The translations under genes were made by a program, and so were the position numbers. The notes below the pieces were generated by a model. It saw only the letters and a list, made by a program, of their open reading frames with translations. It was not told where the DNA came from and ran no database searches. DNA of 34,440 nt from a bacterium (GTDB taxonomy: Bacteria; Planctomycetota; Planctomycetia; Kolteriales; Kolteriaceae), in NCBI GenBank assembly GCA_019748235.1, contig JAIEPU010000116.1:1-34440 (forward strand). The letters are read 5' to 3'. This document shows, piece by piece, positions 4,791 to 34,193 of this stretch; the first letter of the stretch is position 1; every line of letters begins with the position of its first letter.

Positions 4791-5996
4791 ATGGGATCAC
4801 CTGCAACGAATCCTGATGACCAATCCACGCCGAGGCCGCTCGTCGTTCTCTTAGTAGACGATCAGCTCATGGTGGGTGAGTCTGTCCGTCGGATGATCGC
4901 CGATCAGCCCGATATTGAGTTTCATTACTGCCAGGATCCGATGAAGGCCATTGAGATGGCGAACGCCGTCCGGCCGACGGTCATCCTTCAGGATCTGGTG
5001 ATGCCCGAAATCGACGGGCTTCAATTGGTGCGATTCTACCGCGCCAATCCTGCTACCCGTCAGACGCCGATGATCGTCTTGTCGAGCAAGGAGGAACCGG
5101 CGATCAAAGCGAAGGCATTCGCGCTCGGAGCCAATGACTATTTGGTGAAGCTTCCCGATAAGCTCGAGGTTGTTGCCCGCATTCGATACCACTCTCAGGC
5201 GTACATCAATCTTCTCGAACGTAATGAAGCCTATAAGCGACTCGAAGAAAGTCAGCGTCAATTGGCGGCGGAGTTGCGGCAAGCATCTCGCTATGCGCAG
5301 TCGCTATTGCCACGCCCCTTGACGAAGGGTGATATTAGGATCGATTGGCGATTCGTTCCCTCCACTCACTTGGGGGGAGACATGTTTGGCTATCACTGGC
5401 TCGATGACAATCACTTCGCAATGTATCTCCTGGACGTGAGTGGCCACGGTGTCGGGTCGTCGCTCCTTGCCGTCTCCGTGAACAACTTGCTCGCGTCACA
5501 GGCACTTCCAAACACCGATTTTCTCAATCCCGGGCAAGTTCTCGAGCGGCTGAACATGATCTTTCCCATGGAAAGACAAGACGATAAGTACTTCACGATT
5601 TGGTACGGCGTCTTCAATAAGAACGACCGGACGTTGACGTACAGTAACGCCGCCCATCCGGCCGCCATCCTTCACACCGGAAAAGATTCAAGTGACGTGT
5701 CACTTCAAACGCTGGAGTCCGTGGGATTCGCGGTGGGAATGATGGATGGCACGGAATTCGAAAACCAGACGGTGACGCTTGGCCCTTTCGCCAGACTGCT
5801 CCTCTTCAGCGACGGAGTCTACGAAATAGAGCTCGTATCTGATGGGAGCACCTGGAAATACGATCATCTCGTGGAGTATCTTTCGAGCCTATCTCTCGAA
5901 TCACCGGTCAGCGATTCGCTTCTCGGGCATGTTCGATCCATCGGCGGATCAGATTCACTGGCGGATGACTTCTCGATCGTCGAGATATGGTTGTAA
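4791..5996 (+). CDS. Response regulator with PP2C-type (SpoIIE/RsbU) phosphatase output
   Basis: A 401-aa cytoplasmic protein. Residues ~16-135 are a receiver domain (VVLLVDDQ acidic pair, phosphoacceptor Asp68 in LQDLVMPEIDG at 4992, LSSKE, Lys of YLVK). A coiled-coil linker follows at ~140-170 (NEAYKRLEESQRQLAAEL). Residues ~175-400 are a PP2C_SIG serine/threonine phosphatase: HLGGDMFG, LLDVSGHGVGSSLLA, LFSDGVYE and ADDFSIVEIW supply the metal-binding aspartates. Proteins of this build usually dephosphorylate STAS anti-anti-sigma factors in partner-switching pathways. No STAS protein or anti-sigma kinase is in the window. It sits just upstream of, and on the same strand as, a Wsp-type chemosensory operon, in the role that WspR (REC-GGDEF) has in Pseudomonas. 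That it is the array's output is inferred from position and from its receiver domain. Confidence 0.92.
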   Translation: MGSPATNPDDQSTPRPLVVLLVDDQLMVGESVRRMIADQPDIEFHYCQDPMKAIEMANAVRPTVILQDLVMPEIDGLQLVRFYRANPATRQTPMIVLSSKEEPAIKAKAFALGANDYLVKLPDKLEVVARIRYHSQAYINLLERNEAYKRLEESQRQLAAELRQASRYAQSLLPRPLTKGDIRIDWRFVPSTHLGGDMFGYHWLDDNHFAMYLLDVSGHGVGSSLLAVSVNNLLASQALPNTDFLNPGQVLERLNMIFPMERQDDKYFTIWYGVFNKNDRTLTYSNAAHPAAILHTGKDSSDVSLQTLESVGFAVGMMDGTEFENQTVTLGPFARLLLFSDGVYEIELVSDGSTWKYDHLVEYLSSLSLESPVSDSLLGHVRSIGGSDSLADDFSIVEIWL

Positions 5997-5998
5997 TG

Positions 5999-6056
5999 AT
6001 TGCAGTGATTGTATCTCGGCAACTGCTGTTGCCTGACAGGCCGAGATTGCTGCAAT
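5999..6056 (+). other. Nested inverted repeats able to fold as a three-way junction
   Basis: Two bases after the stop of the REC-PP2C gene, ATTGCAG (5999-6005) can pair with CTGCAAT (6050-6056), and inside it ATCTCGG (6013-6019) pairs with CCGAGAT (6041-6047). Within the latter stem, with no unpaired bases, lie two small hairpins: CAAC-TGCT-GTTG (6020-6031) and CCT-GAC-AGG (6032-6040). There is no T-run after it, so it is not a typical intrinsic terminator. It may be a structured 3' or 5' UTR element between the output regulator and the chemosensory operon. Found by eye only. Confidence 0.4.
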
Positions 6057-6064
6057 TCAGTTGG

Positions 6065-6080
6065 TGACAATGGACTGTCA
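6065..6080. promoter_or_regulatory. Short dyad TGACA-N6-TGTCA in the chemosensory leader
   Basis: A 5-bp perfect inverted repeat with a 6-bp spacer, about 95 bp upstream of the MCP start. The size and position would suit a regulator-binding site, but repeats this short also arise by chance. The rest of 5997-6174 shows no clear -35/-10 pair. Confidence 0.15.
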
Positions 6081-6174
6081 TCGAGATCAGAATAGTTTGG
6101 CTGACTTTCTCAGTTTGTGAACTACATTTTCGATCATTGGATCCTCAATCCTAATCTCGTGGCGGATTCCTGAC

Positions 6175-7818
6175 ATGCTGCTGCCGAACCTGACGATTCA
6201 TCGCAAGCTTCAATGGCTGAATGTCCTGAACACAGTCGTCATTGCGAGTGTGCTCATTCTCTGCCTTTGGCTCCTTTCTACCTACCGGATTTTTGGAAAG
6301 GAGTACGATGAAGTCGCGAATTTGCAGGTCCTGAAATCGAATATTGAGCCCGCCGTGCTGACCATTACTCGCCCCTATCAAGCAATCTTGAAATTAGTCG
6401 CCGCCAAGGGGGATGAGCAGATCAACAAAGTGGTCACGCGACTTCAGAGTTTGGAACAAGACTATCGAGCGGTTCACGCGAAGTGGCAGGCGGACCTTCC
6501 AGATGGTCCGCTGAAGAATCTGCTGGCGACAAATTGCTTTAATCCCGCCGACGAGATTTTTCGGATCGCGAGGGAAGAAGTTATTCCAGCCGTTCGTGCG
6601 GGAGAAAATGAGAAGGCTCAGTCCATCGTAGCGAGCAGCATTAGTCCTAAATACGAAGAGCATGTTGCTGCGACGGCGGAAGCAACCAAACTTCTCGATC
6701 AGGAATTCAAGGATCTCGCTTTCACCGTGGGTGGACAGGTCGAACGATGGATGTTGTTCATTTCCATCGTCAGCGTAATTGCCGTCGTACTTCTCTGCAT
6801 CTCTAGCTATCTACTCGCTCGAAGCATCGACCGATCGACACATCAGCTGATCAACCGAGTTCATGAATTGGCGAGTGGGGCGAGTGATCTGACGGCTCGG
6901 TTGAAGGTTGAATCCAATGATGAACTCGGCCAGTTGGCCATGGGCATCAACAGCATGATCGAGAAGATTCAAAGTGTGGTTCATCGCGTGAGAGAGACGA
7001 GCGTCGCATTGTTATCGACAGCGTCTGAAATGACGGCGACCGCAAGCCGCCAGGAATCGACGATGCAGGGGCTCGGCAGTTCATCGGCAGAAATCGCGGC
7101 CGCGGTTCGTGAGATTTCCGCGACGAGTAAGCAACTTGCCGGCACCATGAGTGAAGTGAGTGGTCGAGCGGATCAGGCCGCCACGCTTGCGACCTCCGGT
7201 AGAACACGATTGACGACCATGGAATCGAACATGGGGCAACTGATGGACGCGACGGATTCGATTTCATCGAAGCTCGCAGTGATCAGAGAGAAGGCAGAGA
7301 ACATCAACTCCGTCGTCACCACCATCACTAAGGTCGCGGACCAGACGAATTTGCTGTCGATCAACGCGGCAATCGAAGCGGAAAAGGCTGGAGAATACGG
7401 CAGGGGATTCTTGGTCGTCGCCCGCGAGATTCGCCGCCTTGCGGATCAGACCGCGGTGGCGACTCTTGACATCGAAACCATCGTCCGGCACATGCAAGAC
7501 GCGGTGTCGGCCGGGGTCATGCAGATGGATAAGTTCAGCGGTGAAGTGCGGGGTGGCGTGGAAAAGGTTGCCGAAATAAGCGGACAGACCGGTCAGATTA
7601 TCGAGGAAGTGCAGACCCTCAGCGATCGCTTTCAACAGGTCAGCGAAGGGATGCGAAATCAAGCAATTGGCGCCGAACAGATCAACGAAGCCATGGGCCA
7701 AGTTACGGCCGGCGCACAACAGACACAGACGGCGATGAAGGAATTCAACGAAGCGACAGCTCACCTTCGCAAGTCCGTCGAAGTACTGAACGAAGAGATC
7801 AGCCAGTTCACCGTCTGA
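6175..7818 (+). CDS. Methyl-accepting chemotaxis protein, WspA-like
   Basis: A 547-aa inner-membrane sensor that would control the CheA kinase encoded downstream. TM1 is at residues ~17-37 ([14 protein letters not shown]), followed by a ~150-aa helical periplasmic domain resembling four-helix-bundle sensors, and TM2 at ~192-215. HAMP is at ~216-270 and the long coiled-coil signalling domain at ~275-545. The hairpin tip, [20 protein letters not shown] at ~387-406 followed by EYGRGF, is nearly invariant in MCPs. The continuation [17 protein letters not shown] strongly resembles WspA. No C-terminal pentapeptide for CheR tethering is present. It is the first gene of a tightly packed run and is followed 25 bp later by a CheW gene. 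Confidence 0.93.
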
Positions 7819-7843
7819 GAGGCTTAAGGGCGGAGTGCCAACA

Positions 7844-8305
7844 ATGCTTGGGGTGACTTTTCAGATCGCTGACAATCGTTTGGCGCTGAGCGTCCGTTCG
7901 ATTGTCGAAGTCGTCCCGTCTGTTGGACTGAAGGACGTACTTGGTGGGCCTGCGTGGCTGGCAGGCATTGCTCTTTATCGCGGGCACGTTGTACCAGTGA
8001 TTGATCTCTACCGGCTGGCAAACGCGGGAAAATGCCCTGAGCATCTGAGTACGCGACTGATCATCGTCCGAATCAATGGAGAGGGTGATCAGCGATTCAT
8101 CGCGCTTCGTGCGTCCAATGTCGATGAAGTTTCTGAATTGCCTGATGTTGTCGAATCCGAAGATACTCCTCCTTCCGACCAGCCGGACTTTGGTCGAATG
8201 ATGGTCCATGAAGGTCAAGTGATCCGTGTCCTCGACTTGGATCGTTTGATTCCACGATCGTACCGAAAGGAGATGGAGGAATTGACTGGGGAACTCACCA
8301 CATGA
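7844..8305 (+). CDS. cheW: CheW-like coupling protein (WspB position)
   Basis: A single CheW domain of about 153 aa that links the receptor array to the CheA kinase. The pattern is typical: short beta strands (GVTFQIADNRLALSV), a hydrophobic VVP segment, GIALYRGHVVPVIDL and a C-terminal VIRVLDLDRLI. GGAG at 7832-7835 sits at a good distance from ATG 7844; an in-frame GTG at 7835 would overlap this site and is less likely. The stop overlaps the CheR start as ATGA, which suggests translational coupling. Confidence 0.9.
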   Translation: MLGVTFQIADNRLALSVRSIVEVVPSVGLKDVLGGPAWLAGIALYRGHVVPVIDLYRLANAGKCPEHLSTRLIIVRINGEGDQRFIALRASNVDEVSELPDVVESEDTPPSDQPDFGRMMVHEGQVIRVLDLDRLIPRSYRKEMEELTGELTT

Positions 8306-9597
8306 GTATGAGCTTCCTCGTACGCCATCTTCGAGAGCGGATTGGACTCGATCCAGAATCGCTGGGAGCAAACACGCTTTCGCGAGCGATCACTGCACGA
8401 ATGAAATTCCTTGCGATCAACGATCTGAATCAATACTCGCAAATCGTCATGAGTGATGAGGTGGAATGCCAAGCACTCGTCGAAGATCTGATGGTGCCTG
8501 AGTCTTGGTTCTTTCGTGGGGGGAAGCTCTTTCCCTATCTAGGCAAGATGATCGCGGAAAGGGGGAGTGCTTCCTCGTCCCGTGCTCCCTTCCAAATTCT
8601 GAGTCTCCCCTGCAGTACCGGGGAAGAGCCGTACTCCCTCGCGATCACGCTGGACCAGCTTGGAGTACAAAACGATCGGTATTCGATCGACGCGGTCGAC
8701 ATTTCGTCACGGCACATCGCACAAGCGCGGCAAGCCAGATATCGAGCGCTTTCCTTTCGACAGACGGACGAAGCCATCCAATCTCGTTATTTCCGCAAAG
8801 TCGGGGAAAGCTGGGAATTGCTCCCTTCGATTCGGGACCAGGTTCGCTTCCATCGGGGAAACCTTTTCGATGCTCTGTTCGTGTTAAAGGATCGGCGATT
8901 TGATCTAATCTTTTGTCGGAATCTCCTCATTTATTTGCATGCGGAGGGGCGTCGGCGCGCTATCGAAATTCTCCTCGACTTGCTCGAACCCGAGGGCCTC
9001 CTTTGTGTGGGGCATGCTGAGCCGATCGATCCTGTGGACAGACGTTTTTCCTCGATTGGACCGCCAGAGTATTTCATTTATCGCAAAAACGATTCAGCGA
9101 ACCGAGCGCCGGTACAAGAGATCGTCTTAAAGAGTTCACGTTTGCCGCTTCCCTTGGACGAGCCCAAGCCCGAGAGGAATTCGCCGATTAAGAGAGAGGC
9201 GAAAAGAAAATCATCGCCCCCGTTGAATCAGCCCACTTCCATCAACATCCAAGTCGGCACGCCCCCAACCAATGTTTCCAATCAGGGGAACGTCATCGAT
9301 CGTGCGCGACTCGCGGCGGACGAAGGAAAGCTCAGCGATGCGTTGAAGATTTGCGAGACGGAACTTGCCAGTGGCAAGCCGTCGCCGGACCTCTATTCGC
9401 TATTGGGCATCATTCGTCAAGCAATGCAGGAGACCGATCAGGCGGAGAAAGCATTCGCAAGTGCACTCTATCTGGATCCAGCTCATCAGGAGGCGTTGAC
9501 GCACCTAATGATTCTGACCGAGGGTCGTGGGGATAGAGCGGGTGCGGAGCGACTTCGCCAGCGACTTAGTCGAGCCACGAAAAGAGGTGGCATGTGA
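8302..9597 (+). CDS. cheR: CheR-type receptor methyltransferase with C-terminal TPRs (WspC-like)
   Basis: A 431-aa SAM-dependent glutamate O-methyltransferase expected to methylate the MCP encoded at 6175. The N-terminal helical domain (~1-75) is followed by the Rossmann domain: LPCSTGEEPYSLAITL (SAM loop, ~102-117), a DAVDISSRHI acidic strand, and FCRNLLIYL. After a basic, proline-rich linker (~275-320), residues ~330-425 carry TPR-like helices (ARLAADEGKLSDALKICETE, SLLGIIRQAMQETDQAEKAF). The CheR-TPR arrangement is a WspC trait; the TPRs could replace pentapeptide tethering, which the MCP lacks (inference). Starts inside the CheW stop (ATGA); its own stop overlaps the next GTG start. Confidence 0.93.
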   Translation: MSMSFLVRHLRERIGLDPESLGANTLSRAITARMKFLAINDLNQYSQIVMSDEVECQALVEDLMVPESWFFRGGKLFPYLGKMIAERGSASSSRAPFQILSLPCSTGEEPYSLAITLDQLGVQNDRYSIDAVDISSRHIAQARQARYRALSFRQTDEAIQSRYFRKVGESWELLPSIRDQVRFHRGNLFDALFVLKDRRFDLIFCRNLLIYLHAEGRRRAIEILLDLLEPEGLLCVGHAEPIDPVDRRFSSIGPPEYFIYRKNDSANRAPVQEIVLKSSRLPLPLDEPKPERNSPIKREAKRKSSPPLNQPTSINIQVGTPPTNVSNQGNVIDRARLAADEGKLSDALKICETELASGKPSPDLYSLLGIIRQAMQETDQAEKAFASALYLDPAHQEALTHLMILTEGRGDRAGAERLRQRLSRATKRGGM

Positions 9598-10283
9598 ACG
9601 AGCCATTGAATCGACTTGGTGTCCTCACGGAATGTTGGACAGAGATCGGCGTTTGGGGGAACCGAACTTGTCCGACGCTGAACGACGTCGTCCATTGCCA
9701 TAACTGTGCCGTCTTCGGCGGGGCAAGCCGTCGATTTTTGGAAGGCCCTTGCCCGCCCGGTTATCTCGACGAGTGGACATCCAGACTGAAAGAACCGCTG
9801 GAAGAGGCGGATCAAGACTTCGAAACGGTGATGATCTTTCGACTTGGAGATGAGTGGCTTGCCCTTCGCGTGGCCGTATTGGTTGAGGTAACGACGACGC
9901 GTCCCATACACCGAATTCCTCATCGAACGGGATTTCTCGCAGGAGTTGCCAATATTCGAGGTGAGCTTCAGCTTTGTGCCCGTCTCGATCTGGCACTTGG
10001 TATGAAGCGGGATATCGATCTCTCACCGCCGGGAGTCCGTGGAGAGGAGCAAAACAAGTCTCGACTCATCGTGGTGCAGTCCGAAGGTGAACGGTGGGTA
10101 TTTCCCGTGGATGAGGTCGATGAAGTGTTCCGATTTCCGATCAGCGAACTTGGGAATGTGCCCGCGACGCTTTCTCGATCGCATCAACGATTGGCGAAAG
10201 GCGTGTTTCAATCAAAAGGAAGGGCCGTGGGGCTGCTCGATGACGGTCGTTTATTCCCATTGCTGCGGGGGAAGATGCGATGA
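9594..10283 (+). CDS. cheW: CheW-like coupling protein with N-terminal four-cysteine segment (WspD-like)
   Basis: 229 aa; the second coupling protein of the cluster. The GTG start at 9594 is supported by GAGG at 9584-9587 and a 4-bp overlap with the cheR stop. The CheW domain occupies ~75-225 (VMIFRLGDEWLALRV, IHRIPHRTGFLAGVANIRGE, WVFPVDEVDEVFRF). Ahead of it, residues ~10-45 contain cysteines spaced C-x11-C-x8-C-x2-C (CWTEIGVWGNRTC, VHCHNC), which could bind a metal. From memory a similar cysteine segment occurs in WspD proteins; no database was checked. Ends with ATGA overlap into cheA. Confidence 0.9.
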   Translation: MNEPLNRLGVLTECWTEIGVWGNRTCPTLNDVVHCHNCAVFGGASRRFLEGPCPPGYLDEWTSRLKEPLEEADQDFETVMIFRLGDEWLALRVAVLVEVTTTRPIHRIPHRTGFLAGVANIRGELQLCARLDLALGMKRDIDLSPPGVRGEEQNKSRLIVVQSEGERWVFPVDEVDEVFRFPISELGNVPATLSRSHQRLAKGVFQSKGRAVGLLDDGRLFPLLRGKMR

Positions 10284-13042
10284 CCGACTTCGGGAATTTT
10301 TCCATGATGGAGCTCTTCCGGGAAGAGGTTCGCTCCCACACCGCGACTCTCAGCGAGGGATTGCTCGCACTGGAACAGGATCCGAGTGATCTCGGGAATA
10401 TTGAACCTCTCATGCGTGGCGCCCATTCCATCAAAGGGGCCTCGCGTATCGTCAACATCGAGCCCGCGGTTCAGCTTGCTCACTCGATGGAAAGTGTGTT
10501 TGTCGCGATTCAAGAGGGAAGGATAGGCATCACCCCCAGTGGGATCGACGTTCTACTGCAGGGAACCGATATCCTCGCCGAATTGAGCCAGGTGCGCGAG
10601 GAGGAGATCGCCTCTTGGTCGGCGAAACGATCGGCAGACGTTCAGCGGTTGCAGGCTCAGCTCCAAGCCATCGAAGCAGGAACGATCGAATCGCTCGCTC
10701 CACCAAAACAGACAACCGCCGTTTCGGAAGTGGTGCGAACTTCAGCTCCCATGATCGAACGGAACATTAAGGTCGTCATCCCTCGCGCGCCGATCGCGAT
10801 CAACACCGATTCATCCATGGTGACGGTCTTTCGCGAAGAGGTTCGCTCGGCTGCATTCACCATTAATGAAGAACTTGCAAAACCGGCGGCACCCGATTCC
10901 GCGTCGCTCGAAAGATGCGTCGAGGCGGCGCAGAGCATTCGGGGAGCGGCGCGGCTTGTCGGATTCGATGGCGTGTCAGAATTGGGGCAAAGCCTGCATC
11001 GATTCTTCGTCGAGTGGCGTGATCAAAGTCATGCAGACTCGCCTGAAGAACAGCAGGTGTTATTAGACACGTTGATATTCATCGCGGAGTTGATTCCGGT
11101 CGAGGATGATGATCTGCCGGCATGGATGGAGGCAAACGCCGATCGCGTCGCACAACTCAAAGAGAGATTAAAGTGGTCGCCGACCGTGTCACTTTCGCCA
11201 GCACTTCCTCAACCGCAGACGTCTTCCTCGGTACAGGCTCCGACACCGGCGGCGAAGGTAGAAACGCCAACGAAGAAGACATCGAGCACGGCCGCTGCGG
11301 AATCCGAGGAGGCGGTTGTCCGCGTGACCGCGCAGAGTTTGAACCGGTTGATGGGGCTTGCCGGGGAATCACTCGTGCAGGCACGCTGGCTCGATCCGTT
11401 CTCGACCGCGCTTCTGAAGTTGAAACGTCAGCAAGATCGTCTCGCGGAGTCGATCGATTCCTTGGAAAGCTCCTTAGTGAGCGATGTCCGGCGAGACCAG
11501 TCAACGTCACGTTTTTTGGAGGTGCGCCAACTCGTCGCCAGTTGTCGCGATACATTGATGTCGCGCATGGAGGAGTTTCAAAATCACGCCGCCCGGGCAG
11601 AAGATCTCAATAGTCGACTCTACCGCGAAGTGATTGCTAGCCGCATGCGACCCTTCAGCGACGGAGCACATGCGTTCCCGCGGCTTGTTCGCGATATGGC
11701 GCGCGATCTGAACAAGCAGGTTCGACTCGTGATTGACGGTTCTTCCACGGCGGTCGATCGGGATGTTCTAGAAAAGCTCGAAGCCCCACTGACGCATTTA
11801 CTGCGAAACGCCATCGATCATGGCATTGAGTTTCCGGCTGATCGACTGCAGGCGGGCAAGCCCGAGTCGGGCACGATTCGGCTTGAAGTGAAACATCGAG
11901 CCGGCATGCTGGACATCACGATTTCTGACGACGGCGGGGGAATCGATCCAGAAAAGCTACGGAAAAAGATTGTTGACCGACGACTGACGACGGCCGAAAT
12001 GGCGTCGAGTATGAATGAGGCTGAACTCCTGGAGTTTCTATTTCTGCCCGGATTCTCTACGGCGTCGGCTGTCACCGAGTACTCAGGGCGAGGAGTGGGA
12101 CTCGACGTCGTTCAGACGATGGTACGCCAGGTGGGCGGGTTGGTTCGGATATCATCGGAGTTTGGCAAGGGGACACGCTTCCAACTTCAACTTCCGATTA
12201 CGCTCTCCGTCCTGCGGGCGGTCATCGTCAACATCGCCGGTGAGCCGTACGCATTTCCCCAGAACAGGATTGACCGATTGATTCGGGTAGGTCGTTCGCA
12301 GATCCGGTCGATCGAGCATCGGCAGTTCGTCGCGGTGGATGGACAGCAAGTCGGACTAGTTTTAGCAGCACAACTTCTCGATTTACCTGGCACAGTGCCG
12401 GCCGGTGAGGAATTGCCCGTTCTCTTGTTGAGTGATTCAACGGGGCAGTACGGTCTAATTGTGGATTCATTCCAGGGGGAACAGGATCTGGTGGTGCGCC
12501 CGCTCGATAGCCGCCTGGGTAAGGTGGCGACGCTAAGCGCGGCCGCGATTCTGGACGATGGGTCTCCCGTCCTAATCGCGGACGTTGAGGACATGGTCCG
12601 TTCGATGGACCAGTTCATTCAGGGTAACGCTCTTCGCCGTTGTGAGGAGCAAAAGAAAGAGTCCGGCCCGCAAAAAAGGATCTTGGTGGTCGATGATTCC
12701 ATCACAGTTCGCGAAGTCGAGCGCCAACTTCTCCGGACGCATGGATATGATGTGATGGTGGCGGTCGATGGTCGGGATGGCTGGAATATCCTGCAGTCGG
12801 AAAACTTCGATCTCGTTGTAAGCGACGTCGATATGCCTCGCATGAATGGTCTGGAGCTTGTTCAGTCGATGCGAAACGATCCGGCGCTCCGCAGCTTGCC
12901 AGTCATTATCGTGTCCTACAAGGAGCGAGAGGAAGACCGACTCCGTGGGCTCGAGGTAGGGGCAAATGCGTACTTGACGAAGAGCAGCTTCCACGACAAC
13001 ACTTTTCTGCAAACCGTCGTTGATCTGATCGGCGAGTCTTGA
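10280..13042 (+). CDS. cheA: Hybrid CheA histidine kinase with receiver domain (WspE-like), two Hpt-like domains
   Basis: A 920-aa cytoplasmic kinase. Hpt1 is at ~5-130 with phosphoacceptor His49 in [12 protein letters not shown] (10424). A second Hpt-like domain at ~180-300 begins with the same FREEVRS motif, but the phosphoacceptor position is Gln218 ([11 protein letters not shown], 10931), so it should be inactive. A Ser/Pro/Thr linker and a dimerisation helix region follow, then HATPase ([32 protein letters not shown]), a CheW-like domain (~640-770) and a receiver (~795-918) with Asp849 in [12 protein letters not shown]. The P2 domain that docks CheY in classical CheA is absent. As in WspE, phosphate could pass to its own receiver, to CheB and to the REC-PP2C output. 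Confidence 0.94.
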
Positions 13043-13044
13043 GC

Positions 13045-14058
13045 ATGCGTGTTGCCATCGTCAATGATGCTCCTCTCGCACGTGAAGTGCTAAAGCGCGT
13101 GATACTTTCGACGCCGAATCATTCCGTCGCCTGGCTCGCGGAAGATGGGGCGGATGCCGTTCGCAAGGCGCATCAAGATCCTCCGGACATCATCCTGATG
13201 GATCTTGTCATGCCGGTCATGGACGGGGTCGAGGCGACACGCCGGATCATGGCGGAAAAACCTTGCCCCATTCTCTTGGTGACTTCGAGCGTGACGGGAA
13301 ATTTCAATCTCGTTTATCGAGCGATGGGAAACGGCGGGCTCGACGCGGTGAATACACCGACACTTGGAGCGGGCGGAGTCATTCAAGGAGCCGAGGGAAT
13401 TCTTGCTCGGTTAACGAAATTGTCGAAGACATCAGAAAAGACTCAAGCGATTGCCTCATCCTCATCATCGATCAGTGCGCACGAGATCGATTTAAATCTC
13501 GTCCCGATTATCGCGATCGGAGCCTCGACCGGCGGACCCTCCGCGATCGCACAAGTCCTGACCTCACTCCCGAAGAATCTCGGGGCGAGTGTCATCATCG
13601 CGCAGCACATCGCCGCTGATTTTGCCCCCAGTCTGGCGAAGTGGCTGGAGGATTCAGCCGGGCGTACCGTGCGGGTTGCTAGGCCTGGTGACTCGCCAAC
13701 GGCGGGGGTCGTGCTTCTGGCCAGTACCAATGATCATCTCGTCATTCGGGCCGACCGGAAAGTAGGTTATGAATCCGAGCCGGCAAACTATCCCTATCGA
13801 CCTTCGGTGGACGTTCTCTTCGAAAGCCTCGCGCGGCACTATCCGCAACCCGGCGTGGCGGTTCTTTTAACTGGCATGGGGAGCGACGGGGCAAGGGGAC
13901 TTCTCATGCTCCGGCAGCGCGGTTGGCACACCATCGCGCAGAATGAAGCGACGAGCATCGTCTATGGAATGCCGAAATCGGCGGCAGAGATGAAAGCAGC
14001 GATCGAAATCCTTCCGATTCAAGGGATCGCCGCCGCGATTGCATCGAAGATAAAGTAG
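13045..14058 (+). CDS. cheB: CheB-type protein-glutamate methylesterase (WspF-like)
   Basis: 337 aa; removes methyl groups from the receptor and so opposes CheR. An N-terminal receiver ([11 protein letters not shown], phosphoacceptor in [12 protein letters not shown]) is joined by a Ser-rich linker to the esterase domain. The catalytic triad is visible as Ser in [10 protein letters not shown], His in [13 protein letters not shown] and Asp in GMGSDGARG (residues 161, 188 and 281 from ATG 13045). GGCGAG at 13031-13036 favours ATG 13045; a TTG at 13039 overlapping the cheA stop is the alternative. Last gene of the operon; a convergent gene ends 60 bp downstream and no clear hairpin terminator is seen in between. 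Confidence 0.94.
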
Positions 14059-17476: not shown

Positions 17477-17681
17477 CTGGCGAACTCGAGTATTAAAGGG
17501 ATGAGATTTCGGGCGGAAATACGGCAGGCAGATTCCACAAGGTCGGTTTTAGAACGGATGTCCGGATTTCTAGGAAGAGGAGGATAACGAATAGTGGAGA
17601 TTTGAGCCCTCCTCGTTTAGCCTTTCTGACATCCGAATGATGACCGATGGCGGTAGTCTCAATCTCGATGGAAATCCAAAG

Positions 17682-19664
17682 ATGCGACGTCACTTGTACC
17701 TTACCATTTGCGTTCTGGTGTTTTTCGCCACCGATGGATGGACCGACGAACAAACTTGGATCGTCGCGATTGGGGTGGGAAAGAACAGCGAACCATTTGT
17801 CGATCTCCCGTGTGCGGCGGCGGATGCGGCTCTGATTCGCAGGACGTTCTACGAACGAGGACTTGTTCCCGTCTCAAGCATTCAACTCCTTTCCGATCGT
17901 GAGCCGGCTGAACGGCAACCAACAGGTGAACGGATCAAGCAAGCTCTTTCCGCTCTTGGCCAAGCAGGGGAAAGTGATCACGTCGTCGTTTATTATGCCG
18001 GCCATGGGTACCGTAACGAGCAATCAGGAAAGACCTATCTCGTCCCACAGGACGCGCGGAAGGATGATCTGGAAGCATCGTGTCTTCCTGTTTCTGATTT
18101 ACTCGCAAGCTTGCGAGCCCTCAAGTGCCGTAACAAGGTGCTCATCATTGATGCGTGTCATTCCGGTTCCACGGCCGGAGTCACTGACGGTCGTCGTTAT
18201 GGTGTGACTCGAGAAGACCTAGAAAACGAAGTGCTCGAAGCGGGTGTGTACACGCTTGTCAGTTGCCAAGCCGCTGAGGAAAGCATCGAGGGGGGGAAGA
18301 CCGGGCATGGACTTTACACCTATTGGCTAGCGCGCGGACTCGAAGGACTCGCGGATGACAATGAAGATGGAAAGGTATCGGCCGACGAAGTGAATCACTT
18401 CGCTGCCACTCGGGTGAAGAGTGCGGCCGCTCGATTGAACATTTCACAGCAGCCGGGCCGAATCGTTTCGCCGAATGTGGCTGGCGACCCCGTGCTCATC
18501 GATCTCGCGCCTGAACCGTATCGAGATGCTCTTTCGCGTCTTGGCGAATTACTACATGAGGAGGCCATGACCGCCGGCGTGAAGCGAGTCGGCATTTTTA
18601 GTTTTCTCGATGCAACGGCTCGCCCGACGGTATCGGGAGGGGAATCGATCCCCGAGAGTCCACTCGGTCAACATGCCGGTCTGTTTTTGGAAACGCGACT
18701 CAAAGAGCTTGCCGCCAAAGACTACATCGTGATTGATAGCCGTCTGTTGATGGAAGCAGCACGTGATGAGGATGCGACCCTTTTCACCAATGCGGCATCG
18801 ATCGATAAAGTCTCACAAGCAGCGGGCGGTCTTGACGCCTATGTCAGCGGTTCATTCACCTATCTTCCTTCACAGCAGAGAATTCGTTTGGTGGGACGCT
18901 TAACCCGCCGAGATAACGAAGAGTTAATCGCCTCCTCGACGAGTTCGATCCGCGCCGACGGAGTCACTGAATCGTTTGTCCGGAATCGGAGCATTGCTTT
19001 CCCGCCACCAAAGGAACCATTCTCACCAGGCACGTCGCGAAGCCTTGCGGACTCCCTCAAACCATTAGCTCTTCCGGAAGCTTCCACATCTTCGCACCCG
19101 CTTCTTGATCCCAACTTCCCCTATCGGCTTGAGGTGTGGTCGCGCGGCGCCCCGAAGAAGCTATCTCCCGGACGCGAGCCGAATGAACTAGTGGTATACG
19201 CTGAACCTAACGAAGAGTTCGAATTGCGTCTGCAAAACGGATCGGAAAAGCCCGCGTTTGTTCGCATCATGATCGACGGGAAAAACGTCCTGGGGGCCAA
19301 GATCGAGGCGGTCGATCATGCTCGGTCATGGATTTTTCCAGCGAAATCGACGAAGTCGATTCCCGGTTGGTATCGGCAAAAATCATCCGGTACGGCGGAA
19401 CAGTTCGACGTCACGCCGTTTGTGTTCATCGAACCGCCGACTCTTCGTTCTGTGAAGAGAACTTTTGGATCGAATATCGGCGATATCTCCGCGTACTTTT
19501 ACCGCGCGCGACCCATGGCCTGGGTCAACAAGCTTAGCGTGGGTGAGGTGGAATCGAAGCGATTCGTCGAAACATTTCCAAAGACCGAGCTTGGCGGGCT
19601 TTGTCTTGCTGAACCATTGGCTGCTATTCACATTCGATACGTTCGCGAGCAACCGACCGAATGA
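17682..19664 (+). CDS. Secreted caspase-like peptidase (C14 family) with two additional domains
   Basis: About 660 aa. The signal peptide is RRHLYLTICVLVFFATDGW; ATG 17682 fits it best, though the frame is open to 17637. The caspase domain runs to ~18500: IVAIGVGKNSE, catalytic His in YYAGHGY (18003), catalytic Cys in IIDACHSGS (18156) and YTLVSCQAAEES. A perfect EF-hand-type loop D-x-N-x-D-G-x-V-S-x-x-E lies at 18354-18389, suggesting calcium control. An FlgO/CsgG-like domain follows (~18580-18950: VGIFSFLDA, GLFLETRLKELAAKDYIVID, AYVSGSFTYL), then a beta domain (~19110-19520). Both have counterparts in the divergent gene at 15939. The signal peptide places it outside the cytoplasm, unlike caspases used in phage defence. 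Substrate unknown. Confidence 0.87.
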   Translation: MRRHLYLTICVLVFFATDGWTDEQTWIVAIGVGKNSEPFVDLPCAAADAALIRRTFYERGLVPVSSIQLLSDREPAERQPTGERIKQALSALGQAGESDHVVVYYAGHGYRNEQSGKTYLVPQDARKDDLEASCLPVSDLLASLRALKCRNKVLIIDACHSGSTAGVTDGRRYGVTREDLENEVLEAGVYTLVSCQAAEESIEGGKTGHGLYTYWLARGLEGLADDNEDGKVSADEVNHFAATRVKSAAARLNISQQPGRIVSPNVAGDPVLIDLAPEPYRDALSRLGELLHEEAMTAGVKRVGIFSFLDATARPTVSGGESIPESPLGQHAGLFLETRLKELAAKDYIVIDSRLLMEAARDEDATLFTNAASIDKVSQAAGGLDAYVSGSFTYLPSQQRIRLVGRLTRRDNEELIASSTSSIRADGVTESFVRNRSIAFPPPKEPFSPGTSRSLADSLKPLALPEASTSSHPLLDPNFPYRLEVWSRGAPKKLSPGREPNELVVYAEPNEEFELRLQNGSEKPAFVRIMIDGKNVLGAKIEAVDHARSWIFPAKSTKSIPGWYRQKSSGTAEQFDVTPFVFIEPPTLRSVKRTFGSNIGDISAYFYRARPMAWVNKLSVGEVESKRFVETFPKTELGGLCLAEPLAAIHIRYVREQPTE

Positions 19665-24417: not shown

Positions 24418-24488
24418 TCATTGGAGCTGATGCACAGACAAGGTAAGCTCGGGATACAATTTCGATAACGACAATATCGGCGGGACCA

Positions 24489-26073
24489 ATGGTGTATGCC
24501 ACTCGCGTGCTGCTAGTCACATTCGTATGCTCGATCGGAGCATCGGAGCATCGGAGCATCGGAGGCGGCCGCGCTCCCCAACATCGTTCTCATCCTAGCG
24601 GATGATCTCGGTTACGGCGACGTTCATTGTTACAATCCAGAACGCTGCAAGATCCCCACTCCCAACATCGACCGCTTGGCTGCGGAGGGAATGCGATTTA
24701 CCGACGCTCACTCCTCCTCCGCCGTTTGCTCCCCCACTCGGTACAGCATTCTGACCGGACGTTATCATTGGCGATCTCGGCTCCAAAAAGGAATAGTGAA
24801 TGTGTGGGAGCCGCCTTTGATTGCGGCCGATCGCCTCACGATTCCAGCCCTTCTCAAGCGACGTGATTATCACACATCATGTATCGGAAAGTGGCATTTG
24901 GGTTGGGATTGGCCCTTTAGTGAGAAGGAATTCAAACGCCTCAAAGAAGTGGCTTCAAAAATAAAAGCAGATCAAATACCGACTGAGGCGGACATTAAAA
25001 CTTGGAATAAAGTCTTCAGCGAAACGATCAGAGGAGGTCCAACGACACGCGGCTTTGATACGTACTTTGGTACCGACATTCCAAATTGGCCACCGTTTTG
25101 TTTCATCGAGAACGATCGCACGTTGGGAGTACCGTCGGCGTATCTTCCTGCTCGACTCTTTCGTGATAACCAAGCAAGTCTGCAAGGACCTGCCTTACAG
25201 GGCTGGTCACTGGAGAAGATTCTTCCGACGCTCGGCGATCATGCGTGTGAATATGTCGCCGCTAACTTGAAACGGAAGGAGCCATTCTTCCTCTATCTTC
25301 CGCTGACGTCACCTCACACTCCACTCGCCGTCAATGCGGAGTGGAAAGGAAAGAGCCATCTTAATCCGTATGCGGATTTCGTCATGGAGACAGACGGACT
25401 GGTTGGGCGAATCCTCACGGCCATTGAGTCAAATGGTGGAGCAGACAATACCATTGTTATTTTCACGAGCGACAACGGGTGTGCACCTTATATCGGTGCT
25501 AAGTTCTTAGAGACGATGGGGCATTTTCCGAGTGGTCCCTTTCGAGGATATAAGGCCGATGCTTTCGAAGGTGGGCATCGCATTCCCTTCATCATCCGCT
25601 GGCCCGGTACGGTGACAGCCGCGAGTGTTTGTTCCCAAACGGTTTGCTCCGTTGATTTGATGGCGACCCTGGCAGAAATCGTGGGGGCTTCGATTCCTAC
25701 CAATGCCGCCGAGGATAGCATCAGCATCGTTCCTTTACTGAAAGGGGAGGGGCGACCGATTCGTGAAAGCCTCGTGCATCAATCAATTGACGGAGTCTTC
25801 GCGATTCGCAAAGGTGATTGGAAGCTCATCTTGGGCCCAGGTTCCGGCGGATGGAGCGAACCGCGCGACCACTCTCCGGCAGCGAACGCTTTGCCTCAAA
25901 AGCAACTCTACAACCTTAGAGATGACCTCGCGGAGAAAAAGAATGTAATTGATGTGCATGCCAATGTCGCCGTGGAAATGGGTGCGTTGTTAGACAAGTT
26001 AATTGACGACGGACGTAGCACTCCTGGCCCGCGACAAAAGAACGACGTCACACCTGTCGTCGAGAAGAATTGA
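24489..26073 (+). CDS. Sulfatase, currently out of frame at an 8-bp repeat (candidate phase-variable gene)
   Basis: The mature part (open from 24517, stop 26073) is a complete formylglycine sulfatase: NIVLILADDLGYGD, the modification motif CSPTR with Cys at 24727, GKWHLG, FLYLPLTSPHTPL, FTSDNGC, GYKADAFEGGHRIPFI. These are precisely the residues missing from the paralogue at 3156. It has no start codon in that frame after a stop at 24514-24516; the first TTG (24676) lies inside the domain. A signal peptide, MVYATRVLLVTFVCSIGAS, is encoded from ATG 24489 in another frame, which terminates at 24603-24605. The frames are separated by a tandem repeat at 24534-24564. Losing two 8-bp units, or gaining one, joins them; losing two gives GASEAAALPNIV. 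Substrate would be a sulfated polysaccharide or ester. Confidence 0.85.
24534..24564. repeat. 8-bp tandem repeat ATCGGAGC, 3.9 copies
   Basis: Three perfect units (24534-24541, 24542-24549, 24550-24557) and a fourth matching 7 of 8 bases (24558-24564, then G). The unit length is not a multiple of three, so each gain or loss changes frame. It lies exactly between the signal peptide and mature part of the sulfatase gene. Confidence 0.95.
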
Positions 26074-32130: not shown

Positions 32131-32432
32131 CCAAAGCAGAAATGATCATTCAACTGGTAAAGCAGCCTGTTCAGAAGTTCTTGGAGCATCAACTCACTGC
32201 TATTGATCTCGTACGAGTTGTTGACGAGTTAGTAGGAAACGATCGGCTGGTCGGTTTGGATTCACTATCGGAAGATCTCGTCCAAGAGTTACACGAAGCA
32301 CTCGCTTTATATGTGCCAGACGACGCGACGAGGCGAGAGGAACCGGGCATCTACATTGGCGAGGATGATCTTCGGATGAAAGCGGCGCAGTTCATCGCTG
32401 CTCTGGAGGCATCGGCTCAAACGGGATTGTGA
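32127..32432 (+). CDS. Small acidic protein, candidate immunity protein
   Basis: 101 aa, not recognised as a known family. GTG start at 32127 overlaps the stop of the toxin-like fragment (GTGA). The protein is acidic and predicted helical (QKFLEHQLTAIDLVRVVDEL, LSEDLVQELHEALALYV), ending FIAALEASAQTGL. Acidic helical proteins directly after a toxin tip are commonly immunity proteins; that is the only reason for the call. Its last 16 bp overlap, tail to tail, the 3' end of the IS66 tnpC, so the C-terminus may be encoded by insertion-element sequence. Confidence 0.6.
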   Translation: MTKAEMIIQLVKQPVQKFLEHQLTAIDLVRVVDELVGNDRLVGLDSLSEDLVQELHEALALYVPDDATRREEPGIYIGEDDLRMKAAQFIAALEASAQTGL

Positions 32433-33867
32433 GAGTGGCATAGCTCCGCCGCGTCCTCGCGCTTCCATACACCCGGCAGGAACTGATCGAGTTCCGCAAC
32501 TGGCGTCTGGCCGATCTTGGCGAGGATGCTGGTCAAGTAGCGCTGAGGATCCACTTGGTGACGTTCGGCGGATGCGATCAGCGACCAGAGGATGGCGTGA
32601 TGTTTGGCGGCGGCGTCATGGCCGGCAAAGAGCCAATTCTTTCGGCCGATGGCGACTCGCTTCAGGGCGCGTTCGCTCACGTTGTTGTCAATATTGAGGA
32701 ACCCTTGCGTCGCGTAGACATTGAGCGCTGTCCACTGATTGAGTGCGTAGCCGATCGCGGTTGCCATGGGGCTGCGCGGCAGAACGATTTGGTTCTCGGC
32801 ATCGAGCCAAGCCTTGATGCTTGAGAGCATGGGAACACTACGCTCTTGGCGCAGGGTTAACCGCGTGGCGTCGTCCGCGTCTTTCGCCTCGCGTTCGATC
32901 GAATAGAGTTCGCCTATCATCGCGAGCATCTGTGCGGCCCGTTTTCCGTCGGAATCCTGCGAGTCGTGGAACTTGCGGCGAGCATGCGCCCAGCACGCCA
33001 CTTCCGTGATGCTCTTGCCCGAGTAAATTCCGTCGTAACCGCCGTAGGCGTCCGCTTGCAAATAACCTTGGTAATCATTGAGCCAACTCGCCGGACCATC
33101 GCGGCCGCGACTGGGCGTGTAGTCGTAGACGATGTAAGGATGAGCCTCGTCACCGACATAACACCAGATGCGACCCTTACGACACTGTTTCTCGCCAGGT
33201 GATTGAATGGGGATCGTGGTGTCGTCGGTCGCGACGACACGAGATTCTTTTGCTCGCTCAGCCATGAGATCGACCAGTGGCGCGACGAGTTCGCCAGCGC
33301 ATCGCATCCACGCGCACATCGTGCTGCGGGCAATGTGAACCTCTTGTCGCTCGAAGATTCGTTCGAGCCGATACAGTGGCAGATGATCTCCCAGCTTGCT
33401 CGTGATCACATACGCCAAGAGACTTGGTCCGGGCAGTCCTTTGTCGATCGGTTGCTGTGGCTTGCCGGCAACTTGGATGTTCGGGTTGAAGCCGTCGTGA
33501 TCGCAGGTCGGGCACGCGTACTTGTGGCGAATGTGCTTCAAAACCTTGAAGCTGGCCGGGAAGTATTCGAGCTGCTCCGACGTCTCTGCGCCGATTCGAC
33601 AACGAAACTCGCCGCAACGGGGGCAAGGCTTTTGACCGCCGCCTTTACCGCTTCATCGATCGTCGACTGATGTGTTGCCTTCAACTGCTCAATCTGCTGA
33701 GTCGCTTCCTCACGAATGCGAGTGATCAAGTCATCCCGCTGTTGGCGTTCCTGCGCGATGAACTGTTTGAGCAAAGCGGGATCATCAGGAAGGTCGTCCA
33801 CGCACGTCATGGAGCCTGTTGTAACGAGTGAACTTCGATCGCGCCAGTCCAGTTCTCGCAGAATCAT
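32417..33867 (-). pseudogene. tnpC: IS66 TnpC transposase, internal deletion and frameshift
   Basis: The N-terminal part (33867 to ~33650) reads DDLPDDPALLKQFIAQERQQ and a helical stretch ending STIDEAVKAAV. The catalytic part is in another frame, open from 33652 down to 32417: QKPCPRCGEFRCRIGAETSE, KHIRHKYACPTC, LLAYVITSKLGDHLPLYRLE, ATDDTTIPI (Asp), LQADAYGGYDG (Asp) and NIDNNVSERALK (Glu), so the DDE residues survive. Compared with other IS66 TnpC proteins, roughly 80-100 residues between these two parts (the R-x-x-G-x-x-S-E-R and H-G-R segment) are missing at about 33625-33655. The zinc-finger-like cysteines remain. Confidence 0.88.
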
Positions 33868-34193
33868 GCGCGTTTTCGGATGGTCACGTCCTGCCCCGAA
33901 AGAAGTCGCAACAGACCTTCTCGCGTGATCTCGATTGACACACCGTTACCTCGCGGGAATTGGAACACGCCCCGCTCGATCCGCTTGTAAAAGATCGCCA
34001 GCCCGTCGCGATCCCACCACAAAATCTTCACCAGATGCCCGCCGCGATTGCGAAACACGAACATGTTGCCCGATAGTGGATCGCCGCCGAGGAACGATCG
34101 CACCACGTCCGCCAGGCCGTCAAAACTCTTGCGCATGTCGACCGGCGTCGTCGCTATCCACACCTGAATTCCCGCCACGTCCGCCGTGATCAT
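33864..34193 (-). CDS. tnpB: IS66 accessory protein TnpB
   Basis: 109 aa, complete IS66 Orf2 protein: VWIATTPVDMRKSFDGLADV, GDPLSGNMFVFRNRGGHLVK, ILWWDRDGLAIFYKRIERG and FQFPRG are the usual blocks. It is required together with TnpA and TnpC for IS66 transposition; its biochemical role is not settled. ATG start overlaps the tnpA stop and its stop overlaps the tnpC start. Confidence 0.95.
   Translation of the reverse strand: MITADVAGIQVWIATTPVDMRKSFDGLADVVRSFLGGDPLSGNMFVFRNRGGHLVKILWWDRDGLAIFYKRIERGVFQFPRGNGVSIEITREGLLRLLSGQDVTIRKRA

What the first reader, a model, noticed from the sequence alone, without database searches (positions are those of the whole stretch)
24489..24676. Sulfatase with an 8-bp repeat between signal peptide and catalytic domain: a possible phase switch
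Seen: a good signal peptide from ATG 24489 and an intact sulfatase domain in another frame, separated by 3.9 copies of ATCGGAGC. By arithmetic, +1 unit or -2 units puts both in one frame; -2 units gives a natural A-S-E-A-A-A cleavage region. Known: octamer-type tandem repeats mediate slipped-strand phase variation of surface functions in other bacteria. In this copy the gene is OFF.
Basis: partly seen in the sequence, partly recalled or inferred. Interest (0 to 1): 0.75.

Follow-up and report, generated by a model that had tools for sequence, protein, structure and literature searches.

The report
Sulfatase gene frameshifted by 8-base repeat
In one genome of an uncultured, probably planctomycete bacterium, extra copies of an 8-base repeat put the likely export signal and the body of a sulfatase in different reading frames; this is most likely a recent copying slip that would silence the gene, and an evolved on/off switch remains possible but untested.

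Summary
ATCGGAGC is repeated 3.9 times without error at 24534-24564. The frame from ATG 24489 encodes a leader-like peptide and stops after 38 residues; an intact sulfatase is open in another frame with no ATG, GTG or TTG before 24676. The nearest relative found, a 91% identical protein, is one continuous chain: the window's first frame matches its residues 1-19, the second its residues 14-521. So the window looks like that gene with two extra units. The phase-switch reading is only partly supported. The next two relatives also start in frame. Of 205 distinct sulfatase N-termini in the loci held, 2 ran off a contig end and only the window's lacked a start. In a 1.23 Mb sample no other frame-shifting array of 3 or more units seemed to lie inside a gene. 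Mismatch-repair genes are present, and the enzyme part shows no significant decay. Best reading: a recent, possibly revertible slippage mutation in one of about 29 sulfatase loci. A switch would work like Neisseria opa leader repeats; population reads would decide.

The parts
24489..24605 (+). ORF with likely signal peptide; 38 residues, then stop TGA 24603-24605
   Evidence: Translation; residues 2-20 match residues 1-19 of P0002, 0 of 1000 shuffles as good. Signal peptide judged by eye and by this homology; no predictor was run.
24534..24564 (+). perfect ATCGGAGC tandem array, 3.9 units
   Evidence: Tandem Repeats Finder, 100% matches, score 62; about 5e-8 expected by chance in the genome
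24517..26073 (+). sulfatase reading frame, open from stop to stop, no ATG/GTG/TTG before 24676
   Evidence: Pfam PF00884 E 2.9e-53 and PF16347 E 1.3e-7
24676..24678 (+). first canonical start codon (TTG) in the sulfatase frame; would give a truncated protein without signal peptide and N-terminal aspartates
24527..24543 (+). small inverted repeat ATGCTC/GAGCAT; the right arm recurs further on in the array (24546-24551, 24554-24559)
   Evidence: the region folds no better than shuffles (z -0.27, 75 of 200 shuffles as good), so a role in slippage is speculation

Best explanation
In this assembly a sulfatase gene with a likely export signal is split into two reading frames by a perfect 3.9-unit ATCGGAGC array at 24534-24564, which most likely grew by two units through a recent replication slip and would silence the gene. 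Shown: the array, the two frames, the lack of an ATG, GTG or TTG start for the full enzyme in its frame, and a continuous homologue in the nearest relative found. Inferred: the relative's length at this place equals the array with two fewer units, so the ancestral leader end carried a near-duplicate octamer that was prone to slip. Inferred: ribosomes starting at ATG 24489 stop after 38 codons, so no full-length exported enzyme is made from this copy. Inferred: the lesion is recent, because the 518-codon frame has no stop and is not significantly faster evolving than its sister. It may revert by the same slippage, at an unknown and probably low rate, but nothing shows that switching has been selected.
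For: Array and frames. Continuous homologues: P0002 (91%), P0003 (83%) and P0004 (75%) start with a leader in frame with the catalytic domain. The window's two frames align to P0002 residues 1-19 and 14-521. It is the only N-terminus without a start among 205 distinct ones in the loci held, 2 of which ran off a contig end, and the only one of 13 of its own genome's N-termini that I could read. Changes specific to the window versus P0002: 20 vs 13 (outgroup P0003, p 0.30) and 18 vs 10 (outgroup P0004, p 0.18). No sign of a generally poor assembly: the genome's full mutS and mutL matches and all 50 sulfatase match rows have no stop inside. Arrays of period 5-12 with 3 or more units in the 1.23 Mb sample besides the window's: one adjoining pair of heptamer arrays, between genes by eye.
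Against: The window branch changed slightly more in both relative-rate tests, though not significantly; three changes, one of them radical (G117D), hit columns invariant in the 10 other sequences, which could mean older relaxed constraint, although P0003 and P0004 also have three each (P0002 none). The DNA of P0002-P0004 was not available, so the ancestral repeat number is read from protein length only. No reads were available, so the four-unit state may be a minor or mixed state. One lesion exactly in a leader-end repeat is also what a phase-variable gene caught in its OFF state would look like.
Confidence: 0.68

Rival explanations
1. It is a phase-variable contingency locus. Slippage in the octamer would toggle between in-frame and out-of-frame unit numbers and so switch sulfatase export on and off, as the CTCTT repeats in the leader of Neisseria opa genes do.
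For: Position at the end of the leader, a unit length not divisible by 3, a perfect array and an intact downstream domain. Works like opa (PMC3960869, passages). An intergenic octamer in Haemophilus varies from 1 to 6 units between strains (PMC2651432, passages), so 3.9 units is in the range of a varying tract. Short tandem repeats are somewhat more common in the 150 bases around sulfatase leaders (6 of 203 regions, the window's included, 1.9 expected).
Against: 3 of 3 close relatives are in frame without extra residues. No other frame-shifting array of 3 or more units seemed to lie in a gene in the 19% sample, and arrays at a loose threshold were no more numerous there than in one simulated sequence (5 against 4). 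The octamers described in two papers have 12-15 and 13-21 units (PMC3309571, PMC5749029, passages). Below the 5-unit cut-off of PhasomeIt. Only one homologue is broken, whereas the GeneTack scheme asks for a cluster of five or more for phase variation (PMC3711429, passages).
Confidence: 0.17
2. The four-unit array is an assembly or mixed-strain artefact and the real gene is in frame.
For: The genome is a 326-contig assembly, 89.8% complete, with no reads to check. An IS66 transposase in the same window also appears split between frames.
Against: A 31-base perfect array is shorter than usual reads, so assemblers span it (general knowledge). No stops inside the other sulfatase matches or the full mutS and mutL matches of this genome. 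IS elements are often truly broken (recalled).
Confidence: 0.09
3. The gene is expressed in spite of the frame break, by programmed +1 frameshifting or by a start at a non-canonical codon such as ATC 24550.
For: A database protein from the window's own contig begins at what is ATC 24550 (P0001, 507 residues). The two frames overlap between 24517 and 24605.
Against: No other of 202 readable homologues lacks a start in the enzyme's frame. I saw no known slippery motif by eye; none was searched for. An ATC start would give a protein without a signal peptide.
Confidence: 0.06

Closest known systems
Neisseria opa genes (CTCTT pentamers in the leader-coding region)
   Same: A tandem repeat of non-triplet unit length lies in the leader-coding region, and its unit number decides whether leader and mature protein share a frame (PMC3960869, PMC3899988, passages).
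   Different: Opa repeats vary in populations at about 1e-3 per cell per generation (PMC3960869, passage). Here there is one copy, one repeat number, no variation data, an 8-base unit and a sulfatase.
Haemophilus octanucleotide repeats at hmw loci and between cmkB and pdxS
   Same: 8-base tandem units; one tract varies between 1 and 6 units among strains (PMC2651432, PMC3309571, passages).
   Different: They lie in putative promoter or intergenic DNA; the hmw ones have 12-15 units. The window's array is inside the coding region and has 3.9.
Frameshift pseudogenes and singletons in the GeneTack classification
   Same: A single frame break in one member of a family that is otherwise intact in what I read (PMC3711429, passages).
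   Different: Here the cause is visible: extra copies of a perfect octamer, which in principle can be lost again.

Membership tests
Sulfatase (PF00884) | Pfam profile match over the cut-off | tested here: met
   E 2.9e-53, 181.6 bits, cut-off 25
Sulfatase (PF00884) | active-site motif C-x-P-x-R and conserved aspartates present (motif recalled) | tested here: met
   D29, D30, C71, P73, R75, D319, N320 invariant in the 12-row alignment, two rows of which are the window's own
Sulfatase (PF00884) | continuous leader plus catalytic domain, as in relatives | tested here: not met
   two frames, no canonical start for the full enzyme in the catalytic frame; relatives continuous
SSR phase-variable gene of the opa leader-repeat type | tandem repeat of non-triplet unit in the 5' coding region whose number decides the frame | tested here: met
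   8-base unit at codons 16-26 of the ATG 24489 frame
SSR phase-variable gene of the opa leader-repeat type | repeat number above survey thresholds | tested here: inconclusive
   3.9 units: passes 3 or more (PMC2651432), fails 5 or more (PMC6321876)
SSR phase-variable gene of the opa leader-repeat type | repeat tract kept, with varying number, in relatives | tested here: not met
   3 of 3 close relatives are in frame without extra residues, protein level only; none of the other 202 readable N-termini lacks a start
SSR phase-variable gene of the opa leader-repeat type | repeat number varies within a population, with ON/OFF expression | not testable with these tools
   no reads, no strains of the species; no other genome of its genus among those listed
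Recent frameshift pseudogene | intact in relatives, one lesion, little further decay | tested here: met
   no stop in the 518-codon frame
Programmed frameshift gene | frameshift site conserved in homologues | tested here: not met
   only 1 of 205 N-termini lacks a start in frame; 2 of the 205 were unreadable

The most novel reading that the evidence does not exclude
A planctomycete carries an opa-style switch in which an 8-base repeat at the end of the leader, by gaining or losing units, turns export of one sulfatase on and off, so that cells of one population differ in the sulfated polysaccharides they can attack.
Probability: 0.15. Interest if true: 0.65.

Novelty: new member of a known kind. 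Interest (0 to 1): 0.27.

Why it matters
If it is only a slip, it is an ordinary gene loss in a genome with many sulfatases, useful as a clear example of how leader repeats break genes. If it is a switch, it would carry slippage-based phase variation to a likely free-living polysaccharide degrader and to a secreted enzyme rather than a surface antigen; reads across 31 bases would decide it.

Tried and rejected
Second array elsewhere: I scanned 60 stretches of 20 kb from the 40 largest contigs plus the window (1.23 of 6.34 Mb, not a random sample) and 400 kb of G002. One search took an alignment row in place of the window for one entry; one search repeated the scan with the real window for periods 5-12. 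In the own stretches, perfect arrays of 20 or more bases and 2.5 or more units were a heptamer pair between genes by eye, an ATTG tract of 5 units by an ORF start and a 15-base array that keeps frame. Two octamers of 2.25 units (L175, L184) appeared at the looser threshold; their context was not looked at. At that threshold the own sample held 5 arrays against 4 in one simulated sequence, and G002 held 4 against 1. G002 has a heptamer of 3.1 units inside a long open frame that is not broken (L194). This gives no sign of a set of switchable genes, but four fifths of the genome was not seen.

Mismatch-repair loss as the cause: rejected, full mutS and mutL matches are present; 8-base loops are in any case large for this repair (recalled).

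Hairpin-driven slippage: a 6-base inverted repeat ends in the array, but the region folds no better than shuffles.

Alternative start codons: no ATG, GTG or TTG before 24676. Promoter scan: one weak site upstream, 24431-24460, 0.4 expected by chance; not used.

Closer relatives: family and order hold only 3 genomes. The best near-full-length matches were 63% in the relatives search and 62% in genome contigs, where 80 of 574 relatives were kept and near records may be left out. The protein search scored only 8000 candidates and is clustered at 90%. P0002-P0004 come from a source whose DNA I could not read.

Start counting: one search listed 9 N-termini without a start; besides the window's copy, 8 have an ATG just inside the match, and one search corrects this.

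Literature: searches. From listings, titles and abstract starts I saw no paper on repeat-mediated phase variation in planctomycetes or of a sulfatase; the library lacks most subscription journals. Eight papers were seen as passages only; the one (PMC11868660) was not used.

Full report
What is there. At 24534-24564 the sequence ATCGGAGC is repeated 3.9 times without a mismatch, the strongest tandem array in the window. About 5e-8 such runs would be expected by chance in a genome of this size, so it most likely arose by tandem duplication. The frame from ATG 24489 encodes a leader-like peptide and stops after 38 residues at 24603. The sulfatase frame is open from 24517 to 26073 with no ATG, GTG or TTG before 24676, and matches PF00884 at E 2.9e-53.

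Which state is ancestral. No other genome of its genus was listed. In a search of the large protein database, in which 8000 candidates were scored, the nearest relatives are P0002 (91%), P0003 (83%) and P0004 (75%), then 63% or less. All three begin with a leader in frame with the enzyme. The window's first frame matches P0002 residues 1-19 with 13 of 19 identical letters, and none of 1000 shuffles scores as high; the second frame matches residues 14-521. Both frames cover residues 14-19, as expected if the window holds extra copies of the unit that encodes them. The leader itself is not clearly recognisable in the more distant P0003 and P0004 (48 and 692 of 1000 shuffles as good). The simplest history is an in-frame near-duplicate that gained two units.

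How unusual. Among 205 distinct sulfatase N-termini in the loci held, 2 ran off a contig end and 1, the window's, had no start before the enzyme. In the own genome it is 1 of 13 read, out of about 29 sulfatase loci that I count by eye from the 50 match rows. Short tandem repeats of two or more units occur in 6 of 203 regions around the leader against 1.9 expected from random stretches. The five besides the window's have 2.0 to 2.7 units, and two of them lie ahead of the start by eye, so leaders may be mildly slip-prone, but the window's array stands apart.

Is it decaying or kept? With P0003 as outgroup the window has 20 changes of its own and P0002 has 13 (p 0.30); with P0004, 18 and 10 (p 0.18). 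Both lean toward faster change in the window, not significantly. Three window changes depart from columns invariant in the 10 other sequences (G117D and two V to I); P0003 and P0004 have three each and P0002 none. The active-site residues are intact. This fits a recent lesion, or a gene still in use part of the time; it does not separate the two.

Is there a switch? For a switch speak the place of the array, its perfect copies and the precedent of opa, where pentamers in the leader region do just this at about 1e-3 per cell per generation (PMC3960869, passages). An intergenic octamer in Haemophilus varies between 1 and 6 units among strains (PMC2651432, passages). Against it speak four results. 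The close relatives show no expansion. In 1.23 Mb of the genome, taken from its largest contigs, no other frame-shifting array of 3 or more units seemed to lie inside a gene; the nearest cases are a heptamer pair between genes by eye and an ATTG tract of 5 units by an ORF start. The count is low beside the 12-15 and 13-21 units of the octamers described in PMC3309571 and PMC5749029 (passages) and beside the five-unit cut-off of PhasomeIt (PMC6321876, passages). By the GeneTack scheme a single broken member counts as pseudogene or error, not phase variation (PMC3711429, passages). Mismatch-repair genes are whole, so a mutator background is unlikely.

Verdict. A real, neat frame break caused by a tandem octamer, most likely a recent slip (0.68). 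A switch is possible (0.17 as rival, 0.15 as the bold reading); an assembly fault (0.09) or expression by recoding (0.06) is less likely. Reads across 31 bases would settle it.

Noticed in passing
window 4791-14058: Chemosensory gene cluster (receptor, CheR, CheA with receiver, CheB by Pfam; CheW-like ORFs by eye) preceded by a response regulator with a SpoIIE-type phosphatase output; gene order recalls Wsp systems (recalled), but with a phosphatase in place of a diguanylate cyclase.
   Followed up: partly
window 32417-34193: IS66-type element near the contig end whose transposase appears split: the DDE part (32417-33541) and the upstream ORF (33538-33867, no Pfam hit) lie in different frames.
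   Followed up: partly
L137 15878-15935 (G000 contig 311): Two adjoining heptamer arrays, CAAACTT 5.7 units and CAAACGG 3.3 units, between genes by eye, downstream of an ORF that looks like a small transposase.
   Followed up: no
L143 6676-6695 (G000 contig 317): ATTG repeated 5 times at the very start of an open frame that looks like a radical SAM protein by eye; a second place where slippage might matter.
   Followed up: no
L064, about 5958-5979 (leader region): Another sulfatase whose leader-coding region holds an octamer, CTCTGCGT, 2.6 units, with a start in frame.
   Followed up: no
L175 16128-16198 (G000 contig 288): 15-base repeat, 4.7 units, in a small ORF with a leader-like start by eye; it encodes a DKMSG repeat and keeps frame.
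   Followed up: no
L194 8731-8752 (G002): Heptamer CGCCGAG, 3.1 units, inside a 756-codon open frame that is not broken.
   Followed up: no
window 17637-19664: Caspase-like (Peptidase_C14) protein with a leader-like start by eye, near a large ORF with a planctomycete cytochrome domain.
   Followed up: no
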